From the NCBI RefSeq assembly GCF_004342265.1, contig NZ_SMCS01000001.1:186001-250000 (forward strand): a stretch of 64,000 bases of DNA, read 5' to 3'. The translations under genes were made by a program, and so were the position numbers. The notes beneath the pieces were generated by a model. It was given only the letters and a program-made list of their open reading frames with translations, did no database searches and was not told the origin of the DNA. The stretch comes from Luteibacter rhizovicinus. Its GTDB lineage: Bacteria > Pseudomonadota > Gammaproteobacteria > Xanthomonadales > Rhodanobacteraceae. This document shows, one piece after another, positions 20,405 through 30,640 of this stretch (the first letter of the stretch is position 1; each line of letters opens with the position of its first letter).

Positions 20405-20537
20405 TGTGTTTGCGCGGTCACGCGAGCGGCCCGATGTAAGCGAGAGTACCCGCTGCATCGCCTCACCCGTTCCTGCATGCTCAGTAAGTCGTCGGCTGGC
20501 AAGCCGATTTTTAAATGTGTGGATCGAGGTGTGTGTA
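20405..20537 (+). promoter_or_regulatory. conserved long 5' leader of csp2
   Basis: About 130 nt of untranslated leader, nearly identical to that of the next csp gene (20939-21071). It includes GATGTAAGCGAGAGTACCCG, a hairpin TCGGCT-GGCA-AGCCGA (20492-20507) followed by five T residues, and the GAGGTGTGTGT ribosome-site region just before the start codon. The hairpin plus T-run resembles a weak terminator, so attenuation or a temperature-dependent fold is plausible. Confidence 0.6.
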
Positions 20538-20750
20538 ATGGCTGACAACAAGACGGGTACGGTTAAGTGGTTTAACGATGCGAAGGGCTTCGGCTTCATT
20601 TCGCCGGACGACGGCAGCGCCGACGTGTTCGTGCACTTCCGTGCCATCACGGGCAATGGCTTCAAGTCGCTGGCGGAAGGCCAGAAGGTTAGCTTCAACG
20701 TCGTGAACGGCCAGAAGGGCCTTCAGGCTGAGGAAGTCAAGGCGAACTAA
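20538..20750 (+). CDS. cold-shock protein (CspA family)
   Basis: The 70-aa cold-shock domain protein ([26 protein letters not shown]) has intact RNP1 and RNP2. It is closest to the first csp product, sharing [16 protein letters not shown] and [13 protein letters not shown]. It is preceded by the leader duplicated before the third gene and followed by its own terminator, so each csp is a separate transcription unit. Confidence 0.96.
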
Positions 20751-20771
20751 TCGCTTAGACCTCTGGTACGT

Positions 20772-20804
20772 AAAAAAGCCGGGCGGCGACGCCCGGCTTT
20801 TTTT
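20772..20804 (+). terminator. intrinsic terminator of csp2
   Basis: Perfect stem AAGCCGGGCG-GCGA-CGCCCGGCTT with A-run before and T-run after. Confidence 0.93.
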
Positions 20805-20885
20805 ATGGCTGCTCAGGGCCTTAGGCTCGTGCCTGGCCGGTATTACCGCCCGAAATCGCGACGCAGGTGTCAAAAACACGACGTT

Positions 20886-20929
20886 TGTAGGCATTTTCCT
20901 ACAGCACTTTGGGTGAATCTGAGTATTAT
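20886..20929 (+). promoter_or_regulatory. csp3 promoter with TGTAGG-N6-CCTACA dyad
   Basis: The dyad TGTAGG-catttt-CCTACA (20886-20903) lies 20 nt before TATTAT (20924-20929), the same geometry as in front of csp2. The bases between differ between the two genes, so the dyad and -10 are the conserved parts. Confidence 0.6.
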
Positions 20930-20938
20930 CGAAGCCGC

Positions 20939-21071
20939 TGTGTTTGCGCGGTCACGCGAGTGGCCCGATGTAAGCGAGAGTACCCGCTCCATCGCCTCAC
21001 CCGGTCCTGCATGCTCAGTAAGTCGTCGGCTGGCAAGCCGATTTTCCAGTGTCTGGATTGAGGTGTGTGTT
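20939..21071 (+). promoter_or_regulatory. conserved long 5' leader of csp3
   Basis: Near-copy of the csp2 leader. Only scattered substitutions are seen over ~110 nt, including the TCGGCT-GGCA-AGCCGA hairpin (21026-21041) followed by four T residues. The stretch between the csp2 terminator and this leader holds only the promoter. Confidence 0.6.
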
Positions 21072-21284
21072 ATGGCGGAACAAGTAACAGGTACGGTTAA
21101 GTGGTTCAACGACGCGAAGGGCTTTGGCTTCATCACGCCCGACGCGGGCGGCGCGGACTTGTTTGTTCACTTTAAGTCCATCAAGGGCAACGGCTTCAAG
21201 TCGTTGGCGGAAGGTCAGAAGGTCAAGTACGTTCCTGCTCAGGGACAGAAAGGTCCTCAGGCCGAAGACGTCGAGCCGATCTGA
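21072..21284 (+). CDS. cold-shock protein (CspA family)
   Basis: The 70-aa cold-shock domain protein ([26 protein letters not shown]) has RNP1 intact and RNP2 as LFVHF. It is more divergent than the other two in its second half ([28 protein letters not shown]), although its leader is almost the same as that of csp2. This contrast points to selection on, or recent copying of, the leader. Confidence 0.96.
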
Positions 21285-23358: not shown

Positions 23359-24234
23359 ATGTCCGTGACGGCAATTTCGGTGGAAGGACGCGAACGCGAC
23401 CTAGGCGATGGCTTTGTCGTTCGCCGTCTGCTGCCCCATCTACAGGCACGGCACGTCGGTCCGTTCGTATTCTTCGATCAGATGGGGCCGGCCGATTTTG
23501 CCGAGGATTCCGGCATGGATGTACGGCCGCATCCGCATATCGGTCTGGCCACCGTTACCTGGCTTTTCCAGGGTGCGATCCGTCATCGGGACAGTCTGGG
23601 CAGCAACGTCGATATCCATCCGGGCGATGTGAACTGGATGACGGCAGGGCGCGGCATCGTCCATTCGGAACGCACGCCGCCGGACGAACGTCACCATGGA
23701 CAGAACCTGCATGGCATCCAGGTGTGGGTCGCCCTGCCCAAAGCGTTCGAGGAAATCGAGCCCGAGTTTCATCATCACTCCGCCTCGGAACTGCCAAGGG
23801 TCGAACTCGACGGCGCACGTCTCACGGTCATTGCCGGCGAAGCCTTTGGCCGGGAGTCGCCGGTGAAGGTGTTCGCGCCGATGTTCTTCGTCGAGGCGCG
23901 CCTCGAGGCTGGCGCATCGATCGTCCTTCCGGACATCCATTCGGAGTGGGGCGCGTATGTCGTGGAAGGTCATGCGACGTTTGGCGGGCTCGATCTGCCC
24001 GCGCTCGGCATGGGAGTGCAATACGGTGGCGAACCGCCGGTACTCAAGGCGACGGAATCGTCGTTGATCATGCTTTTCGGCGGCGCGCCGCTCGATGGAG
24101 AACGTCACCTCTGGTGGAACTTCGTATCCAGTTCGAAGGAGCGGATCGAACAGGCGAAAGACGACTGGCAGGCACAACGGTTCGGAACAGTGCCGGGTGA
24201 CGACGGCGAATTCATTCCACTGCCGACGTACTGA
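23359..24234 (+). CDS. pirin family protein
   Basis: The 291-aa bicupin pirin (MSVTAISVEGRERDLGDGFVVRR) has N-terminal cupin metal ligands in RPHPHIGLATVTWLFQGAIRHRDSLG and the typical VNWMTAGRGIVHSER. Pirins bind iron, and some have quercetin dioxygenase activity; the physiological role varies. Length is typical. It is 18 nt downstream of the ene-reductase, so they are probably cotranscribed as a redox-stress set. Confidence 0.93.
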   Translation: MSVTAISVEGRERDLGDGFVVRRLLPHLQARHVGPFVFFDQMGPADFAEDSGMDVRPHPHIGLATVTWLFQGAIRHRDSLGSNVDIHPGDVNWMTAGRGIVHSERTPPDERHHGQNLHGIQVWVALPKAFEEIEPEFHHHSASELPRVELDGARLTVIAGEAFGRESPVKVFAPMFFVEARLEAGASIVLPDIHSEWGAYVVEGHATFGGLDLPALGMGVQYGGEPPVLKATESSLIMLFGGAPLDGERHLWWNFVSSSKERIEQAKDDWQAQRFGTVPGDDGEFIPLPTY

Positions 24235-24250
24235 CGAGACGAGATCCGCC

Positions 24251-24553
24251 ATGAGCGAGTTCGCATCCTTCAAGGATTTTTATCCTTACTACCTCGGCGA
24301 ACACCGCGACGTGCGCTGCCGCCGCATGCATTTCGCCGGCAGCTGGGTCGTTATTCTTGCGTTGGTGTTGTTGGTATCGACGGGCCAGCTGCGTTGGCTG
24401 CTGCTGGCCCTGGTCGGTGGTTATGGATTCGCATGGATCGGGCACTTCGTATTCGAAAAGAACCGGCCGGCGACGTTCCGGCATCCGCTCTGGAGCCTGA
24501 TGGGCGACTGGGTGATGTTCTGGCAAATACTGCGCGGGCGCGTGTCGCTCTGA
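24251..24553 (+). CDS. Mpo1-like (DUF962) membrane protein
   Basis: The 100-aa protein (MSEFASFKDFYPYYLGEHRD) has two hydrophobic segments (~32-48 and ~50-65) and conserved histidines in YYLGEHRDVRCRRMHFAG and IGHFVFEKNRPATFRHP. This is the Mpo1/YGL010w-like family, related to 2-hydroxy fatty acid dioxygenases. The bacterial function is not settled. It starts 16 nt after the pirin stop. It converges on cqsA with only 26 nt between. Confidence 0.88.
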   Translation: MSEFASFKDFYPYYLGEHRDVRCRRMHFAGSWVVILALVLLVSTGQLRWLLLALVGGYGFAWIGHFVFEKNRPATFRHPLWSLMGDWVMFWQILRGRVSL

Positions 24554-24579: not shown

Positions 24580-25839
24580 TCAGGCCACGTATTCCAGCGA
24601 TCGTTGCGCACCGCGCTTCGCGCGGCGACTGGCGCTCCATGCGGGAAGATCGAGTTCGTCGCGTGCCTTCGTGCACACGTCGACGAGGCGTTCCACGTCG
24701 CTATCGCTCATGCCCGCATTCAGCGTGAGTCGAAGTAGCGAACGATTGACCGTTGTAGCGGGCGCACTGAAAACCGAACCGAAGATGCCGTAGCGTTCGA
24801 GCACGTCGCGTACCTTGCCAGTCAGAATCTCGACGCCTGCCTCGAATGCAACGATTTGCTCGGTGCCGTCGGCGATGGGATAGCCTAGCCGGGTCAGTTC
24901 GCAGCGCACGTGCCGGGTAACCTGACGCAGTCGCGTACGTCGCCAGCCCTCTGTCTGGATAACCCGGTGCGACGCCGACATGCCTGCCAGTTCGGAGGGC
25001 AGTAGCGACGAGCTGAAGATCGCGGGCAAAGCCTCGCAGCCGAAATAATCCTTGAAACGATCGGTGCAGGCGATGAATCCGGCGCGCGAGCAATAGGCCT
25101 TCGCCAGACTGGCGGTGATGAAATGGACCCGGTCCTGAAGCCCAAGACTGGCCACCAGACCTTCGCCACGCGTGCCGTGCGTGCCGAGAGAATGGGATTC
25201 GTCCACGATCAGGACGCAGCCCGATGCCTGGGCGACCGCGGCGATCTCGACGAGCGGCGCCAGACTGCCATTCGTGCTGTAGACCGCGTCGACGACGATG
25301 ACTCCCGGTCCGTTGCGCAAGACCTGTCGTTCCAGGTGGGCTGTGTCGTTGTGCAGCACCGACACCGCTCGCGCTCCGGCGCTGCGAATGCCCTCCCAGA
25401 GAGACGCGTGCGCCAGCATGTCGATGTAGACCGGCGTGCGATCGTCCGCGATCGACTGGATAAGGCCCACGTTCGCTGCGTAACCCGATTGCGCCAATAT
25501 GCCGTTCTCCGTGCCGACAGCACGGGCGAGTTCGTACTCCACGCGATGCAATGGATCGTCCGCATCCTGCATGAACAGCGCGGACATCATCATCCCAAGG
25601 CCACCCTTTGCGAGCGACGAGCGCTGCGCCTCGACAATGTCGGGGTGGCCGGCAATCGACAGATAGTCGTTGCTTTGTAGCAAGAGATCGTTCGTCGTAG
25701 GCTTACGGCCGCGCAAAATGTGACGGCCACCCCAGTCGATGGCCACCCGTTCGTTGTGAAATTTATCCACGCGGCGATTGACGAACTCCGGAAGGGCGGG
25801 AGCTTTCAGGACGCGGTGCAGGACGGATACGTTCTCCAT
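24580..25839 (-). CDS. cqsA: CqsA-like alpha-hydroxyketone autoinducer synthase
   Basis: The 419-aa PLP-dependent alpha-oxoamine synthase is clearly closer to Vibrio CqsA/Legionella LqsA than to BioF or KBL. Shared blocks include LLLQSNDYLSIAGHPDI, QSGYAANVGLIQSI, YIDMLAHASLWEG, GPGVIVVDAVYST, LIVDESHSLGTHG (D213), the PLP lysine in ITASLAKAY (K247), PAIFSSSLLPSE and GIFGSVFSAPAT. CqsA joins an acyl-CoA with S-adenosylmethionine or 2-aminobutyrate to form CAI-1-type signals. A matching sensor kinase and response regulator lie just upstream on the same strand. The ribosome site AGAGG is 8 nt before the ATG and can be base-paired away by the leader. Confidence 0.92.
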   Translation of the reverse strand: MENVSVLHRVLKAPALPEFVNRRVDKFHNERVAIDWGGRHILRGRKPTTNDLLLQSNDYLSIAGHPDIVEAQRSSLAKGGLGMMMSALFMQDADDPLHRVEYELARAVGTENGILAQSGYAANVGLIQSIADDRTPVYIDMLAHASLWEGIRSAGARAVSVLHNDTAHLERQVLRNGPGVIVVDAVYSTNGSLAPLVEIAAVAQASGCVLIVDESHSLGTHGTRGEGLVASLGLQDRVHFITASLAKAYCSRAGFIACTDRFKDYFGCEALPAIFSSSLLPSELAGMSASHRVIQTEGWRRTRLRQVTRHVRCELTRLGYPIADGTEQIVAFEAGVEILTGKVRDVLERYGIFGSVFSAPATTVNRSLLRLTLNAGMSDSDVERLVDVCTKARDELDLPAWSASRRAKRGAQRSLEYVA

Positions 25840-25847
25840 GGTGATTT

Positions 25848-25952
25848 CCTCTCTCTCTTAGTGGTTATGTCTGGGCGACATCACACACGCCGCGGATCGC
25901 AGCGCGCGCACGCCGACCTCGCCCTGGTCGGCGCATATAAGAGAGACAGAGG
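25848..25952 (-). promoter_or_regulatory. cqsA leader with Shine-Dalgarno-sequestering stem
   Basis: In the minus-strand transcript the stretch over 25952-25938 can pair with 25860-25848 in a 13-bp stem with a 2-nt bulge, and the second arm contains the AGAGG ribosome site. The enclosed loop holds another hairpin, CGCCGACC/GGTCGGCG (25911-25918 with 25926-25933). This would hide the start region of cqsA if the transcript begins upstream of 25952. A TTATAT-like -10 just inside it would give a shorter RNA that escapes. Confidence 0.5.
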
Positions 25953-26100
25953 CGGCACGTTTTGAGACGCCCCTAGCCGTTAGGTGTAGGTAACGAGAGA
26001 AGGCGTGCGCGGGCCTACGCTTAGGCAACGCGCACACGAACCCCGGCTCGCACCGGAGCGACACCTGTGGGAAATACCTTACTGGATAGGCGTTGGGGGG

Positions 26101-27138
26101 CTAGAGGAACCGGCCGCGGCTGTCCGCGGCAAGGCTGAGATCCTGTTCACGCAGCCAGCTGCGGTAGGACTTGACGTGCTGGAGCCGGAACCGCTCCACA
26201 TCGTCGATCAGCGCGTAGTAGTACCACTGCTCGCCGGATATCGCCGTGGCCGGGTACATATGGGCTTCGGGCTGGGAAATGCTCTTGTGGTAGAAGCCGT
26301 CGCGCGAGGCGAACCAGGGCAGGGCTTCGCAAGAACGCATCGATTCGAGCACCGAATCGGGTGCGCCCAGATCGGATGCGATCTCGAAGTGCGTACGCAG
26401 GTCCTCGTCCGTCTGCACCAGCAGGAACCGGCCGATGCCCCACGCATCGAGCAGCAGCAAACCGGTCGGATTGCAGTGCACGTAGCACTCCACCGGCTGG
26501 AACGTGGCCGTTACGCCTTGCAGTACCTCGCGGAAAGCGGGGTCTCGAAGGAACCGGAAATTGCCAAGGGCCAGGGTTTCGGCGACGAAAGCGCTGGCGC
26601 GTTCGAAATAGCGACGCTGGAGCTCGACGATCGCCGTTTGCAGCTTTTCGATCGCCAGCGGGTCGTTTTTGCGGATGAAACGGTCGATGACGCCTGAATT
26701 GAAGGCGTCGATGGCCGTGGCGTCGTCGGCCCGGCCGGTCAGCAGGATCTTGCCGATATGAGGGTTCGGCAAGCGTTTGCAGAAGGTAATGCCATCCATG
26801 TCCGGCATCGCCTGATCGACGACGACGACCGAGATTTCGGCGAAACGCTCGGGGTCGTACACCACGCGATGGATCGAATCGATATCCAGCGCGACCAGTT
26901 CCTGGGTTTCCGACGGCCGGTCTTTCCAGCGATATAGCCAGCCGCCGCCCGGAACGGGCCGGCTGCCGGTATTGCCCAGCGTGGACAGCGCGGCGCGCGG
27001 CGAACTGAACGTGCGCACGCGCATCATCGGATCGAGCAGCAACGGGACGACGTCGAGGTATTCCTCGTGGTCGTCCACCAGCACGGTGGTGGTGGGAAAG
27101 TGGAAGGGCTGGATATCGCCCTGCGCATTCAACGTCAT
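26101..27138 (-). CDS. LqsR-like response regulator of the cqs locus
   Basis: The 345-aa protein has a receiver-like N-terminus: acidic pair VDDHEEY (22-23), phospho-acceptor VVVVDQAMPDMDG (D108) and LLTGRADDATAIDAF with conserved T. A ~35-residue insert (GGGWLYRWKDR onward) separates the first strands from D108, and the usual K-P is replaced by FIRKND. The C-terminal ~170 residues match no DNA-binding, GGDEF or HD-GYP pattern I know, which recalls LqsR of Legionella. Its ATG overlaps the kinase stop as TGATG (a GTG at 27141 is the alternative), so kinase and regulator are coupled. Confidence 0.82.
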   Translation of the reverse strand: MTLNAQGDIQPFHFPTTTVLVDDHEEYLDVVPLLLDPMMRVRTFSSPRAALSTLGNTGSRPVPGGGWLYRWKDRPSETQELVALDIDSIHRVVYDPERFAEISVVVVDQAMPDMDGITFCKRLPNPHIGKILLTGRADDATAIDAFNSGVIDRFIRKNDPLAIEKLQTAIVELQRRYFERASAFVAETLALGNFRFLRDPAFREVLQGVTATFQPVECYVHCNPTGLLLLDAWGIGRFLLVQTDEDLRTHFEIASDLGAPDSVLESMRSCEALPWFASRDGFYHKSISQPEAHMYPATAISGEQWYYYALIDDVERFRLQHVKSYRSWLREQDLSLAADSRGRFL

Positions 27139-28511
27139 CACTGCGTGTCGCCGGTATCCGGAAGAGGAAAGTCGAGGGTGAACTCGGTGAACTCACCCCA
27201 GTTGGAATGGCAGACGATGCCTCCGCCCATATGCTCCATCGCCGCGAGGGAAAAAGCGAGCCCTATTCCGAGGCCGGTGACGCCGCCTTCGTGGCCTTCG
27301 CTGGAATAAGAGTAGAAACGGTTAAATATCCGTGGCAGGACATCGGGTGGAATGCCGGGACCCGAATCGTAAACCCGGATGCGGTTGGAGGTCTCGCCGG
27401 GCTCGATATAAATGCCGATTTCGCCCTTACCGGCACGTCCCGTATGGAACAAGGCGTTGCGAAGAAGATTGAACAGAACATGCACGAACAGGCTTTCCGC
27501 CCCCATCAGCGTGAAATCGCCCGTCGGGGACAGCATGATCCGGTCGCGCTCGGCACGCGAGCCATACGGATACCGGCGTAGCGCCTGCTCGACGCACTCC
27601 CTTGCCGACAGCGGGTGGAGAGGTACCTCTCCGATGGGGCGGGCCGCAAGCAACAGCATGTCGATGATCGTGTTGGCGTAGGTGACCTCGCGCTCCATGA
27701 CGCCGACGCTGCGTTCCAGCGCATGCAGATTCTGCTCTCGCAGTTCCGGCACGGGCAGACCTTCGCTTTCGGCCAGCCGGTGACTGCGGATGAGGTCAGG
27801 CATGAACCGGCCGACGGCCTTCGCGGCGATCCGCAACGATCCGAGCGGTGTACGCAACTCATGGGCGATGTTGTTCGACGCGGCGGTCAGGGCGTCGAGG
27901 CGCGATTGTTCGGCCATCGACGACGACACGCTACACACCGCGCCGCCGACCATCGCGAACAGGAGCAGGGGAATGTATTCGAGCATCGGCGCCACGTGCA
28001 GATGCGCGGCCGGCGACAGAAGGAACGCGATGGTCGCGAAGATGCTGCCCACCGTGAACACCAGCAGGAAGCTGGCGACATCGAAGAGCATCATGAGCAG
28101 CATGACGGCCGCCATGTGCGTCATCAGCCATGCGGGGGTGGCATTGCGCAGCGTCATGTAGCCCACGAAGAAGGGCAGCGCGATCGTCATCGCCAGATAC
28201 CAGTACGACGGTAGCCAGGCCCTGAACCGTCGCGGCCACCAGGGAAGCAGCGCCAGGGGCAGGAAGGTCGCGCTGCATGCCAGCCGCAGCGGCAGGTTCT
28301 CGTAGGGCTGGGGAAACAGGAAGGCCCATACCGGGTAATAGATGGCGAGCGAGAAGCAGCCGACCACGCCGATCGCCACCATCTTGGGCTGCGAATAGCG
28401 CGTGCGCGCGAACATCGTCGACTCGAAGCGCCCCATTGCCCGCAGGAACAGCCAGGCCTGCATCCGCACGAAGCGAACTGGGTTGGCGAACTTATGCCCG
28501 GCTGGAGACAT
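27138..28511 (-). CDS. cqsS: CqsS-like membrane sensor histidine kinase without receiver domain
   Basis: The 457-aa kinase has about six hydrophobic segments (residues ~44-195), then HisKA (NNIAHELRTPLG, H217) and HATPase (NLLRNALFHTG, YDSGPGIPP, GLGIGLAFS). The first helices read YYPVWAFLFPQPYENLPLR, almost the same as the CAI-1 receptor CqsS of Vibrio (FPQPYENLPLR), which strongly indicates an alpha-hydroxyketone sensor. It ends after the ATPase domain, so the receiver found in CqsS is absent; the coupled regulator must take the phosphate. Start is uncertain: the ATG at 28436 would match CqsS length better than 28511. Confidence 0.88.
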   Translation of the reverse strand: MSPAGHKFANPVRFVRMQAWLFLRAMGRFESTMFARTRYSQPKMVAIGVVGCFSLAIYYPVWAFLFPQPYENLPLRLACSATFLPLALLPWWPRRFRAWLPSYWYLAMTIALPFFVGYMTLRNATPAWLMTHMAAVMLLMMLFDVASFLLVFTVGSIFATIAFLLSPAAHLHVAPMLEYIPLLLFAMVGGAVCSVSSSMAEQSRLDALTAASNNIAHELRTPLGSLRIAAKAVGRFMPDLIRSHRLAESEGLPVPELREQNLHALERSVGVMEREVTYANTIIDMLLLAARPIGEVPLHPLSARECVEQALRRYPYGSRAERDRIMLSPTGDFTLMGAESLFVHVLFNLLRNALFHTGRAGKGEIGIYIEPGETSNRIRVYDSGPGIPPDVLPRIFNRFYSYSSEGHEGGVTGLGIGLAFSLAAMEHMGGGIVCHSNWGEFTEFTLDFPLPDTGDTQ

Positions 28512-28577: not shown

Positions 28578-28967
28578 TCAGCGGAAATTCTGGTGACAGG
28601 ACTGGCACGCGTCGCTCACTGGCTTCAGCGCGACGGTCAGTGCCGCGCACGTCGCGGGCGCGGCCTTTGTTGCCCCGGCCAACGCGGTGTCGAGTTGGCG
28701 GGCGGCGTCGTAGAAGCCCTTGTCCATGCTGGGGAAGGCTTCTTCGATGTCGGCGGCGGCACTGGTCAGACGCGCCAGCCGTGCCGCAGTCGCGGGGCCA
28801 TCGCATTGCTGGCTGCGCAGGCTGTTCCTGAGGACCCCGACATGATGCTGCATGACCGCCATCACCCCCCGATGATAGGGCGTGCCCTGGCGCAGGGCAC
28901 TAAAGGCGAAGGTAGCACCCATGGCACCCACGGCGAGGCCCAGGACGATCAGGAGCAGGGCGCGCAT
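28578..28967 (-). CDS. exported monohaem cytochrome c'-like protein
   Basis: The ~129-aa protein starts MRALLLIVLGLAVGAMG, a signal peptide or N-terminal anchor. It is mainly helical and ends with a single CxxCH haem site, DACQSCHQNFR, at the very C-terminus. That is the placement seen in four-helix cytochrome c' and related proteins. An alternative start lies ten codons upstream (28997). The role is unknown; electron transfer or gas binding in the periplasm is plausible. Confidence 0.8.
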   Translation of the reverse strand: MRALLLIVLGLAVGAMGATFAFSALRQGTPYHRGVMAVMQHHVGVLRNSLRSQQCDGPATAARLARLTSAAADIEEAFPSMDKGFYDAARQLDTALAGATKAAPATCAALTVALKPVSDACQSCHQNFR

Positions 28968-29101
28968 GGGCAGTCCATTGATTCGGGCCGTCAGCATAGC
29001 GAACGGGTCGATTCTTTCAATATGGGATAATCCGCGCAGAGTCGGCGACGACGCCCGTTCCCGTTAGCGGCCGACACTCGCATTCCCAGAGCTTCCCTCG
29101 C

Positions 29102-29899: not shown

Positions 29900-30640
29900 T
29901 TACCAACCCATGTAATGCCCGCCGTTGATCGCCAGGTTCGACCCGGTGATCCAGCTCGATTCTTCCGCGGTAAGGAAGGCCACCGCGTGCGCGATTTCCT
30001 CGGGACGGCCAAGGCGGCCGACCGGGATCTGGGCGATGATTTTCTCGCGGATATCGTCGGGTACGGCCATGACCAGGTCCGTACCCACGTAGCCCGGGGA
30101 CACCGTATTGACGGTAATGCCGAAGCGGGCGTTTTCCTGGGCCAGCGAGATCGTGAATCCGTGCACGCCGGCCTTGGCGGCGGCGTAGTTCGCCTGACCG
30201 TACTGACCCTTCTGGCCGTTGATCGAACTGATCTGCACGATGCGGCCCCAGCGCCGGGCGCGCATGCCCTCGATGACGGGGCGGGTCACGTTGAAGCAGG
30301 CGTTGAGGTTGGTGTTCACCACCTCGGTCCACTGCTGGTAGTCCATCTTGTGGAAGGTGGTATCGCGAGTGATGCCCGCATTGTTTATCAGGACTTCGAC
30401 CGGGCCGGCCAGATCCTCGACTCCGCGGATCATGGCCTCGGCCGAGACCGGATCGGAGACGTCGCCCGCCACCATCACGACCTCGATGCCGTCACGGATC
30501 ATGTCCTCGCGCCAGGCGGCGGCGCGGGCCTCGTCGCGATAGTTGGTGGCGACGCGATGACCCTGTCGCGCCAGATAGCGCACGATCGCGGTACCGATTC
30601 CTCCGGTGCCACCCGTGACCAATGCCGTGCGCTGCGTCAT
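29900..30640 (-). CDS. phaB: acetoacetyl-CoA reductase
   Basis: The 246-aa SDR reduces acetoacetyl-CoA to (R)-3-hydroxybutyryl-CoA for polyhydroxyalkanoate synthesis. It opens MTQRTALVTGGTGGIGTAI, has LINNAGITRDTTFHKM, the active-site serine/tyrosine in SSINGQKGQYGQANYAAAKAG, and ends with INGGHYMGW, all PhaB-type features. FabG is the alternative, but the NGQKGQ-GQ block and terminal NGGxxM favour PhaB. No phaA or phaC is in the window. Confidence 0.92.
   Translation of the reverse strand: MTQRTALVTGGTGGIGTAIVRYLARQGHRVATNYRDEARAAAWREDMIRDGIEVVMVAGDVSDPVSAEAMIRGVEDLAGPVEVLINNAGITRDTTFHKMDYQQWTEVVNTNLNACFNVTRPVIEGMRARRWGRIVQISSINGQKGQYGQANYAAAKAGVHGFTISLAQENARFGITVNTVSPGYVGTDLVMAVPDDIREKIIAQIPVGRLGRPEEIAHAVAFLTAEESSWITGSNLAINGGHYMGW

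What the first reader, a model, noticed from the sequence alone, without database searches (positions are those of the whole stretch)
24580..28511. A CqsA/CqsS-type alpha-hydroxyketone quorum-sensing locus in a Xanthomonadales-like genome
The synthase matches CqsA in blocks specific to that branch (LLLQSNDYLSIAGHPDI, DESHSLGTHG, PAIFSSSLLPSE, GIFGSVFSAPAT). The kinase shares YYPVWAFLFPQPYENLPLR with the CAI-1 receptor CqsS. A response regulator lies between them, all on one strand. These signals are known from Vibrio (CAI-1) and Legionella (LAI-1), while Xanthomonadales are known for DSF signalling. A complete synthase-sensor-regulator set here suggests a separate signal channel, perhaps controlling the nearby killing system; the last point is speculation.
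Basis: partly seen in the sequence, partly recalled or inferred. Interest (0 to 1): 0.82.

Follow-up and report, generated by a model that had tools for sequence, protein, structure and literature searches.

The report
Luteibacter alpha-hydroxyketone quorum-sensing locus
This is a complete Legionella/Janthinobacterium-type chemical signalling system (signal maker, membrane sensor, response regulator) in the soil bacterium Luteibacter; the kind of system is known, but here the signal-maker gene seems to carry a folded RNA leader, and some relatives appear to have lost the maker while keeping an altered sensor.

Summary
At 24580-28511, all on the minus strand, lie a CqsS/LqsS-type histidine kinase, an LqsR-type regulator and an alpha-hydroxyketone synthase. 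The synthase passes the curated CqsA model (537.9 bits, cut-off 428; BioF 230.5 of 426). The regulator matches the solved Legionella LqsR over nearly its full length, so the set is Lqs/Jqs-like, not Vibrio-like (no receiver fused to the kinase). The genome is a Luteibacter. The cassette is old: the synthase is in 23 of 23 Luteibacter and 35 of 233 family genomes, with shared flanking genes where read.

(2) C193 sits where V. cholerae C170 sets tail length, predicting a long-tailed signal. (3) The synthase has a conserved leader predicted to hide its ribosome-binding site (family 23 of 33 at 123 nt, 32 of 33 at 193 nt; outside 15 and 24 of 58). Signal and targets are untested.

The parts
27138..28511 (-). 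Sensor histidine kinase, LqsS/JqsS/CqsS type (457 aa): N-terminal membrane sensor, HisKA with H217, HATPase; no receiver domain
   Evidence: Vibrio CqsS alignment; W128, T131, F185, C193 correspond to V. cholerae W104, S107, F162, C170.
26101..27141 (-). LqsR-type response regulator (346 aa; GTG start overlaps the kinase stop by 4 nt, or ATG at 27138); phospho-acceptor D109; unassigned output domain
   Evidence: match to 6sy9 over residues 10-335; D109 invariant in 35 of 35 aligned.
24580..25839 (-). Alpha-hydroxyketone autoinducer synthase, CqsA/LqsA/JqsA family (419 aa), K247 in SLAK
25837..25949 (-). Structured RNA leader of the synthase mRNA (model R1 match, 81 bits; next hit in the genome has E 0.54)
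   Evidence: (z -5.21 for 25837-25945).
25938..25946 (-). Predicted stem P0, 5' arm TCTCTCTTA
   Evidence: Fold; pairs with 25852-25860; p 0.055 against shuffles.
25852..25860 (-). Predicted stem P0, 3' arm TAAGAGAGA, overlapping the purine-rich ribosome-binding region
25910..25934 (-). Hairpin P1 (GCGCCGACC / GGTCGGCGT) with loop AGGGCGA
   Evidence: 92% of cells paired, 4 of 10 pairs with two-sided changes across 19 Luteibacter; one pair is unpaired in 11 of 19.
25873..25878 (-). TCGCCC, complementary to the P1 loop GGGCGA (predicted loop-loop or pseudoknot pairing)
   Evidence: 6 of 6 pairs kept in 19 of 19 rows, one pair with a two-sided change (2 rows), five never vary.
28578..28997 (-). 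Cytochrome c'-like gene; upstream boundary of the cassette (not part of it)
24095..24553 (+). Mpo1-like gene; downstream boundary of the cassette (not part of it)

Best explanation
This is an alpha-hydroxyketone quorum-sensing cassette of the Lqs/Jqs kind. The PLP enzyme joins an acyl-CoA to an amino-acid-derived substrate (S-adenosylmethionine or aminobutyrate in Vibrio) to make a CAI-1/LAI-1-like signal; the membrane kinase senses it and changes phosphorylation of D109 of the LqsR-type regulator, whose output domain acts by an unknown route. From the specificity residues (W128, T131, F185, C193) I predict a signal with a tail near C10, as in V. cholerae, rather than C8. In this family the genes are collinear (kinase, regulator, synthase), and synthase translation is probably held down by an RNA leader that pairs with its ribosome-binding site. 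Shown: gene content, family membership, shared flanks, residue patterns, leader conservation and predicted fold. Inferred: chemistry, sensing, phosphotransfer, translational control.
For: Synthase over the curated CqsA cut-off, nearest solved proteins CqsA, separated from the genome's own two AOS paralogues in the tree. LqsR match. Kinase aligned with Vibrio CqsS, with the W104 and F162 positions invariant in 71 of 71 synthase-linked kinases. Synthase in 23 of 23 Luteibacter, kinase-regulator-synthase order read in all 23; same cassette order in 18 of 18 first-copy loci, three of them from other genera. All 35 family genomes with synthase have the regulator. The homologous jqsA of Janthinobacterium affects violacein and its mutant is partially restored by cqsA and lqsA (PMC3566124, passages). 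Leader.
Against: No chemistry or expression data. The sensor has no family model of its own in the libraries used; kinase identity to Vibrio CqsS is only 31%. L183 and G189 differ from the Vibrio gatekeeper residues F160 and F166, so the tail-length prediction rests on one position. The leader stem P0 beats shuffles at p<0.05 in only 10 of 33 leaders taken singly, this one at 0.055; fold z-scores are near zero in some Luteibacter; model R1 does not find leaders in Pinirhizobacter, g2 or Tahibacter.
Confidence: 0.87

Rival explanations
1. The enzyme is an ordinary alpha-oxoamine synthase (BioF, KBL, SPT or ALAS) beside an unrelated two-component system.
For: Same fold family; two further AOS-family genes lie elsewhere in the genome.
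Against: BioF, KBL, SPT and ALAS models score far below their cut-offs while the CqsA model passes; the tree places it inside the CqsA/LqsA group; the kinase and regulator are CqsS/LqsR relatives and travel with it.
Confidence: 0.02
2. The cassette is a recent horizontal acquisition, perhaps from Burkholderiales.
For: Many Paraburkholderia and Rhodocyclales carry homologues; presence is patchy across the family (5 of 26 genera), and of two genomes of g12 one has it and one does not.
Against: Present in all 23 Luteibacter, shared flanking genes in five genera, family sequences group together apart from some long-branch rows, and the gene order differs from the convergent order of 52 of the 80 named loci. 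An old transfer into the family ancestor is not excluded.
Confidence: 0.05
3. The leader is not a regulator: the hairpins are G+C-rich folding of a promoter region or a protein-binding palindrome.
For: P0 is not significant leader by leader; purine-rich ribosome sites pair easily with pyrimidine runs; a loop of fixed sequence can also be a DNA site. 24 of 58 outside leaders and 10 of 36 window genes meet the same criterion at 193 nt.
Against: Stem letters change together while the loop stays; the loop and its complement change together once; Tahibacter leaders with other letters fold to the same plan; 32 of 33 against 24 of 58.
Confidence: 0.3

Closest known systems
Jqs system of Janthinobacterium sp. 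HH01 (JqsA, JqsS, JqsR)
   Same: Same three components with a separate regulator likened there to LqsR; free-living environmental host (PMC3566124, abstract and passages).
   Different: Here the genes are collinear kinase, regulator, synthase with a structured synthase leader; targets unknown. Jqs sequences themselves were not compared.
Lqs system of Legionella pneumophila (LqsA, LqsS, LqsR; 6sy9)
   Same: Regulator homologous over residues 10-335; regulator encoded apart from the kinase (PMC3376566, passages and section 11).
   Different: No hdeD between the genes (by the review that gene is peculiar to L. pneumophila); no second sensor of the LqsT sort found in this genome. LqsA and LqsS sequences were not compared.
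Cqs system of Vibrio (CqsA, CqsS)
   Same: Same enzyme family; sensor positions W104, F162 and C170 kept, S107 as T.
   Different: Vibrio CqsS is a hybrid kinase with its own receiver, feeding LuxU/LuxO; here a separate LqsR-type regulator (circuit from PMC3376566, passages).

Membership tests
CqsA/LqsA/JqsA alpha-hydroxyketone synthase | Passes curated equivalog model NF005526 | tested here: met
   537.9 bits, cut-off 428.
CqsA/LqsA/JqsA alpha-hydroxyketone synthase | PLP lysine and active-site residues in register with CqsA | tested here: met
   K247, D213, H216 invariant in 11 aligned synthases and aligned with 3hqt; that this lysine holds PLP is recalled.
CqsA/LqsA/JqsA alpha-hydroxyketone synthase | Makes an alpha-hydroxyketone or its amino form | not testable with these tools
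   Needs extracts and mass spectrometry.
CqsS/LqsS sensor kinase | Sensor domain homologous to CqsS with ligand-determining residues | tested here: met
   W128, T131, F185, C193 at V. cholerae W104, S107, F162, C170 (roles from PMC3376566 section 11); F160 and F166 are L183 and G189, not kept.
CqsS hybrid kinase (Vibrio) | C-terminal receiver domain | tested here: not met
   Pfam finds HisKA and HATPase only; the V. campbellii ORF has 690 aa against 457 here.
LqsR response regulator | Receiver plus the LqsR-specific C-terminal domain | tested here: met
   6sy9 aligned over residues 10-335, 170 bits; D109 invariant in 35 of 35.
LqsR response regulator | Phosphorylated by the cognate kinase and dimerises | not testable with these tools
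   Needs biochemistry.
BioF / KBL / SPT / ALAS | Passes the respective curated models | tested here: not met
   bioF 230.5 of 426.45; glycine C-acetyltransferase 188.3 of 460; SPT 186.7 of 500; ALAS 176.8 of 338.55.
Known Rfam RNA family (for the leader) | Match at the gathering score | tested here: not met
   Only 4 sub-threshold matches at 25700-26300; the one bacterial family, sX13, 14.9 of 50 bits on the opposite strand. The other Luteibacter leaders were not searched (one search was too large).

The most novel reading that the evidence does not exclude
Rhodanobacteraceae put signal production under a new family-specific RNA switch: a leader with an anti-ribosome-site stem and a P1 loop that pairs with a downstream segment sets synthase translation by an internal cue (a metabolite such as the enzyme's own substrate, temperature, or a small RNA). 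Where the synthase was lost, the kinase-regulator pair was kept and re-tuned to another input, with S107 and F162 equivalents replaced in parallel in two genera.
Probability: 0.3. Interest if true: 0.75.

Novelty: new variant of a known kind. Interest (0 to 1): 0.5.

Why it matters
It shows that a signalling language known from Vibrio, Legionella and Janthinobacterium is old, general equipment of Luteibacter, a soil and plant-associated genus of Xanthomonadales, an order better known for DSF signalling. The family offers matched natural variants: complete loci, receptor-only loci and empty sites at one address. That makes it possible to test which receptor residues depend on the presence of the synthase, and what the LqsR-type output does without its signal. 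Two paper searches listed no report of a structured leader on an alpha-hydroxyketone synthase (4 papers, listing only, one of them on Legionella CsrA targets and not read, none).

Tried and rejected
Plain BioF-type enzyme: rejected. Recent transfer: rejected. Phage cargo: no viral contig hit in one scan with a single-protein query, which finds close relatives only. Plasmids: 7 records, five Vibrio, one Cupriavidus, one Tistrella, best identity 53.4%. Neighbouring acetoacetyl-CoA reductase gene at 29900-30640 as part of the pathway: not pursued; it lies beyond tcdA, and the same gene stands beside tcdA in genomes without the cassette too. A coding reading of the leader (short frame from 25936): no call tested it; not favoured, because the ATG is not kept in most rows and indels shift frames in the alignment. 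sX13 small RNA as the leader's partner: an sX13-like gene exists (43.2 bits, below its cut-off of 50; 13 of 23 Luteibacter at E 0.001, none over the cut-off), but the published target mark is GGGG (PMC3771888, passages) and the P1 loop has GGG only; left open. DSF synthase: 4 of 7 enoyl-CoA-hydratase-family hits were scanned against NCBIfam, and no DSF synthase name was among the best 25 families shown for each; the library may lack a model, so DSF is undecided. Duplex test of P0 arms against other species' arms: matched arms better on average (mean difference -5.35 kcal/mol), and in all but 7 of 23 Luteibacter no other-genus arm does as well; not better in Pinirhizobacter (32 of 32 others as good), g2 (20 of 31 each) or Oleiagrimonas (12 of 32), and 3-13 of 27 others do as well in Tahibacter.

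Limits. The kinase comparison used 17 family kinases (7 of 23 Luteibacter) plus 51 outside loci, 2 Vibrio and 1 Cupriavidus. The leader alignment A5 used 19 of 23 Luteibacter; the four left out (L023, L026, L032, L051) were then all found by the model (60.1, 60.8, 37.9, 57.5 bits); by eye L023 lacks the loop complement and L026 and L032 keep it only with a G-U pair. The pair counts use a structure drawn from these same sequences, and related sequences can beat shuffles without any structure, as the tool warns. Only the best 80 of 530 named relatives were kept. Sequences counted are related and not independent; leaders of 193 nt reach into the regulator gene where the gap is short (168 and 148 nt in two rows). 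Regulator pieces: in G250 it lies on two contigs, and in G254 synthase and regulator are partial; the synthase of G016 is listed with one TGA inside the match. The list of genomes without a match was cut off, so whether every member of g4 and g6 is receptor-only is not shown. Oleiagrimonas is a long branch, and the regulator-only tree (quick method) does not resolve its place.
Full report
What is there. Kinase and regulator overlap by 4 nt (or by 1 nt if the regulator starts at the ATG at 27138); a gap of 261 nt separates regulator and synthase.

Synthase. It scores 537.9 bits against NCBIfam's alpha-hydroxyketone-type autoinducer synthase model (cut-off 428), against 230.5 of 426.45 for BioF. 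The nearest solved proteins are V. cholerae CqsA at 344 bits, then AOS enzymes near 136 bits. The genome's two other AOS-family genes are only 29 and 31% identical. In a tree of 84 sequences (quick method) it falls in the CqsA/LqsA group, away from those two.

Regulator and kinase. Pfam sees a receiver only, but residues 10-335 of 346 align with structure 6sy9 (that 6sy9 is Legionella LqsR is my reading of the entry together with the structure paper cited in PMC10692735, which I did not see). The kinase has HisKA and HATPase domains (HisKA just under its cut-off) and no receiver. Its sensor aligns with Vibrio CqsS. So the architecture is that of Lqs and Jqs systems (PMC3376566 and PMC3566124, passages). 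No second sensor of this type was found in the genome at E 0.1.

Host and spread. The synthase model is passed in 26 of 61 relatives: all 23 of the genus (this genome included) and 3 of 14 others of the family, none of 24 genomes of other families. Across the family, 35 of 233 genomes in 5 of 26 genera have it at E 1e-100, and 49 of 233 in 10 of 26 genera have the regulator at E 1e-30. All 35 with synthase have the regulator (on two contigs in G250, partial in G254); 14 have the regulator without a synthase match. In the named collection 530 of 550 candidate stretches encode relatives; the best 80 were kept. Of these 80, 20 Xanthomonadales loci are collinear kinase-regulator-synthase, 1 further Lysobacteraceae locus is collinear with two regulators, 52 are convergent (synthase facing regulator and kinase; in 4 of them the stretch ends within the regulator), 2 Variovorax read synthase-kinase-regulator, and 5 show neither partner, 3 of those on short contigs or near a contig end.

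One address, three states. The cassette lies between a cytochrome c'-like gene and an mpo1-like gene. The 18 first-copy loci (15 Luteibacter, three other genera) all have kinase-regulator-synthase with tcdA upstream, though some lack cytochrome c', mpo1 or pirin. Of 11 same-family genomes without synthase whose site was read, 2 keep kinase and regulator, 7 have cytochrome c' directly beside mpo1, and 2 lack mpo1 there and have no cassette. Reading 8 more genomes of the two receptor-only genera gave the same picture, 10 of 10 in all. In g6 the regulator match ends about 10-160 nt from mpo1; in g4 the gap is about 1.8 kb, and in the one locus read for frames it holds a 565-aa gene. Four further genomes have a distant kinase-regulator pair (36-38%) without synthase elsewhere. 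In the joint kinase-regulator tree the 10 receptor-only rows form one clade (100/100) that is sister to Luteibacter, Pinirhizobacter and Oleiagrimonas, with synthase-bearing Tahibacter and g2 outside (Oleiagrimonas is a long branch). That favours loss of the synthase. The flank tree is poorly resolved at depth and puts the receptor-only genera among genera with empty sites. Branches to the receptor-only groups are long in the kinase-regulator tree (0.32 plus 0.41 or 0.52) but short in the flank tree (0.06 plus 0.10 or 0.13; the nodes are not strictly the same), while within each group both proteins are again well kept.

Receptor residues. V. harveyi F175 (V. cholerae C170) sets tail length (PMC3285556, passages); F162 and W104/S107 bear on head-group recognition (PMC3376566 section 11). 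Counted from its GTG start, the V. campbellii Phe is residue 175. The matching residues here are W128, T131, F185 and C193. Position 131 is S or T and position 185 is F in 71 of 71 synthase-linked kinases; the receptor-only kinases have A (6) or I (4), and L (6) or M (4). W128 is kept in all 81. Of 42 columns conserved at 97% or more, all six g6 kinases differ at 4 of 14 sensor columns and 0 of 28 kinase columns (Fisher p 0.009); all four g4 kinases at 1 of 14 and 0 of 28. At 90% the counts are 6 of 30 and 1 of 59 for g6 (p 0.005), 4 of 30 and 2 of 59 for g4 (p 0.17, not significant). Different replacements in g4 and g6 point to separate changes. Residue 193 is Cys in 7 of 7 Luteibacter compared, Pinirhizobacter and Oleiagrimonas, Phe in 6 of 6 Tahibacter, Ser in both g2, Ala in all 10 receptor-only kinases and in 35 of 51 outside loci. 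This predicts a long-tailed signal here and a C8-type signal in Tahibacter (inference).

Leader RNA. The stretch before the synthase folds well in this genome: z -5.21 against 200 shuffles; five other Luteibacter gave -3.40, -1.34, -3.98, -4.46 and -2.20. Hairpin P1 with loop GGGCGA keeps 92% of its pairs with changes on both sides at 4 of 10 pairs, and GGGCGA is complementary to a downstream TCGCCC in 19 of 19 aligned Luteibacter leaders, changing together to AGGCGA and TCGCCT in two related species (covariation score 0.192 against 0.148 in shuffles, 0 of 500 as high; slid versions at most 0.164). P1 with P2 gives 90.4% paired and score 0.291 against 0.237. A covariance model finds all 23 Luteibacter leaders, including 4 not used to build it, and the Oleiagrimonas leader, ending with an ATG at the expected start (E 0.0024), but not those of Pinirhizobacter, g2 or Tahibacter (53 sources). 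It occurs once in this genome; the next hit has E 0.54. The purine-rich ribosome site pairs at least 50 nt upstream in the minimum-energy fold in 32 of 33 family synthase leaders of 193 nt, against 24 of 58 outside synthase leaders and 10 of 36 other genes of the window; with 153 nt 23 of 33, 17 of 58 and 10 of 36; with 123 nt 23 of 33, 15 of 58 and 6 of 36. Seven of seven Tahibacter leaders share the plan with other letters. Family leaders have mean z -2.46 (18 of 33 at -2 or below), window genes -0.71 (8 of 37), outside synthase leaders -0.86 (13 of 58). Against this: P0 alone reaches p<0.05 in only 10 of 33, several Luteibacter have z near 0, and the fold statistics count related sequences as if independent. 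No Rfam family fits.

Literature. Searches for alpha-hydroxyketone with Xanthomonad and quorum sensing (no paper), Luteibacter with quorum sensing (15 of 36 listed), Luteibacter with signal terms (20 of 319 listed), CqsA with Luteibacter (no paper) and alpha-hydroxyketone with four related genera (12 of 371 listed) listed no paper on this system in these bacteria. The library holds open-access papers only. NCBI's model already names such synthases, so the annotation itself is not new.

Verdict. A real, old Lqs/Jqs-type system in Luteibacter: new variant of a known kind, with a conserved synthase leader and a series of sender losses with sensor changes as the parts worth following up.

Noticed in passing
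   Followed up: partly
L031:8995-10209 (= L110) and L030:8807-9973: Second, solo synthase (55% and 51% identity) in L. jiangsuensis CC60 and Luteibacter sp. Sphag1AF without kinase or regulator match nearby; in CC60 it lies beside a gene with a methylglyoxal-synthase domain and genes that look by eye like T6SS parts.
   Followed up: partly
L157, L158, L159, L160: LqsS-LqsR-like pairs (36-38% regulator identity) without synthase at other sites in four family genomes of three genera.
   Followed up: partly
L175:1501-1616: sX13-like small RNA gene (43.2 bits, below cut-off) downstream of a gene that looks by eye like polA.
   Followed up: partly
L156:4589-6286: 565-aa gene, by eye an M28-type peptidase, standing where the synthase is in complete loci; no NCBIfam match at 1e-10.
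   Followed up: no
L062:2336-7212: Lysobacteraceae bacterium PS02065 has two LqsR-type regulators on either side of the kinase, all collinear with the synthase.
   Followed up: no
window 20406-21284: Two cold-shock-type genes in tandem whose upstream stretches also look duplicated (similar translated N-terminal extensions; by eye).
   Followed up: no
G016:C1:27022-28215 (L170): The synthase of this Luteibacter is listed with one TGA inside the matched stretch; whether the gene is interrupted was not examined.
   Followed up: no
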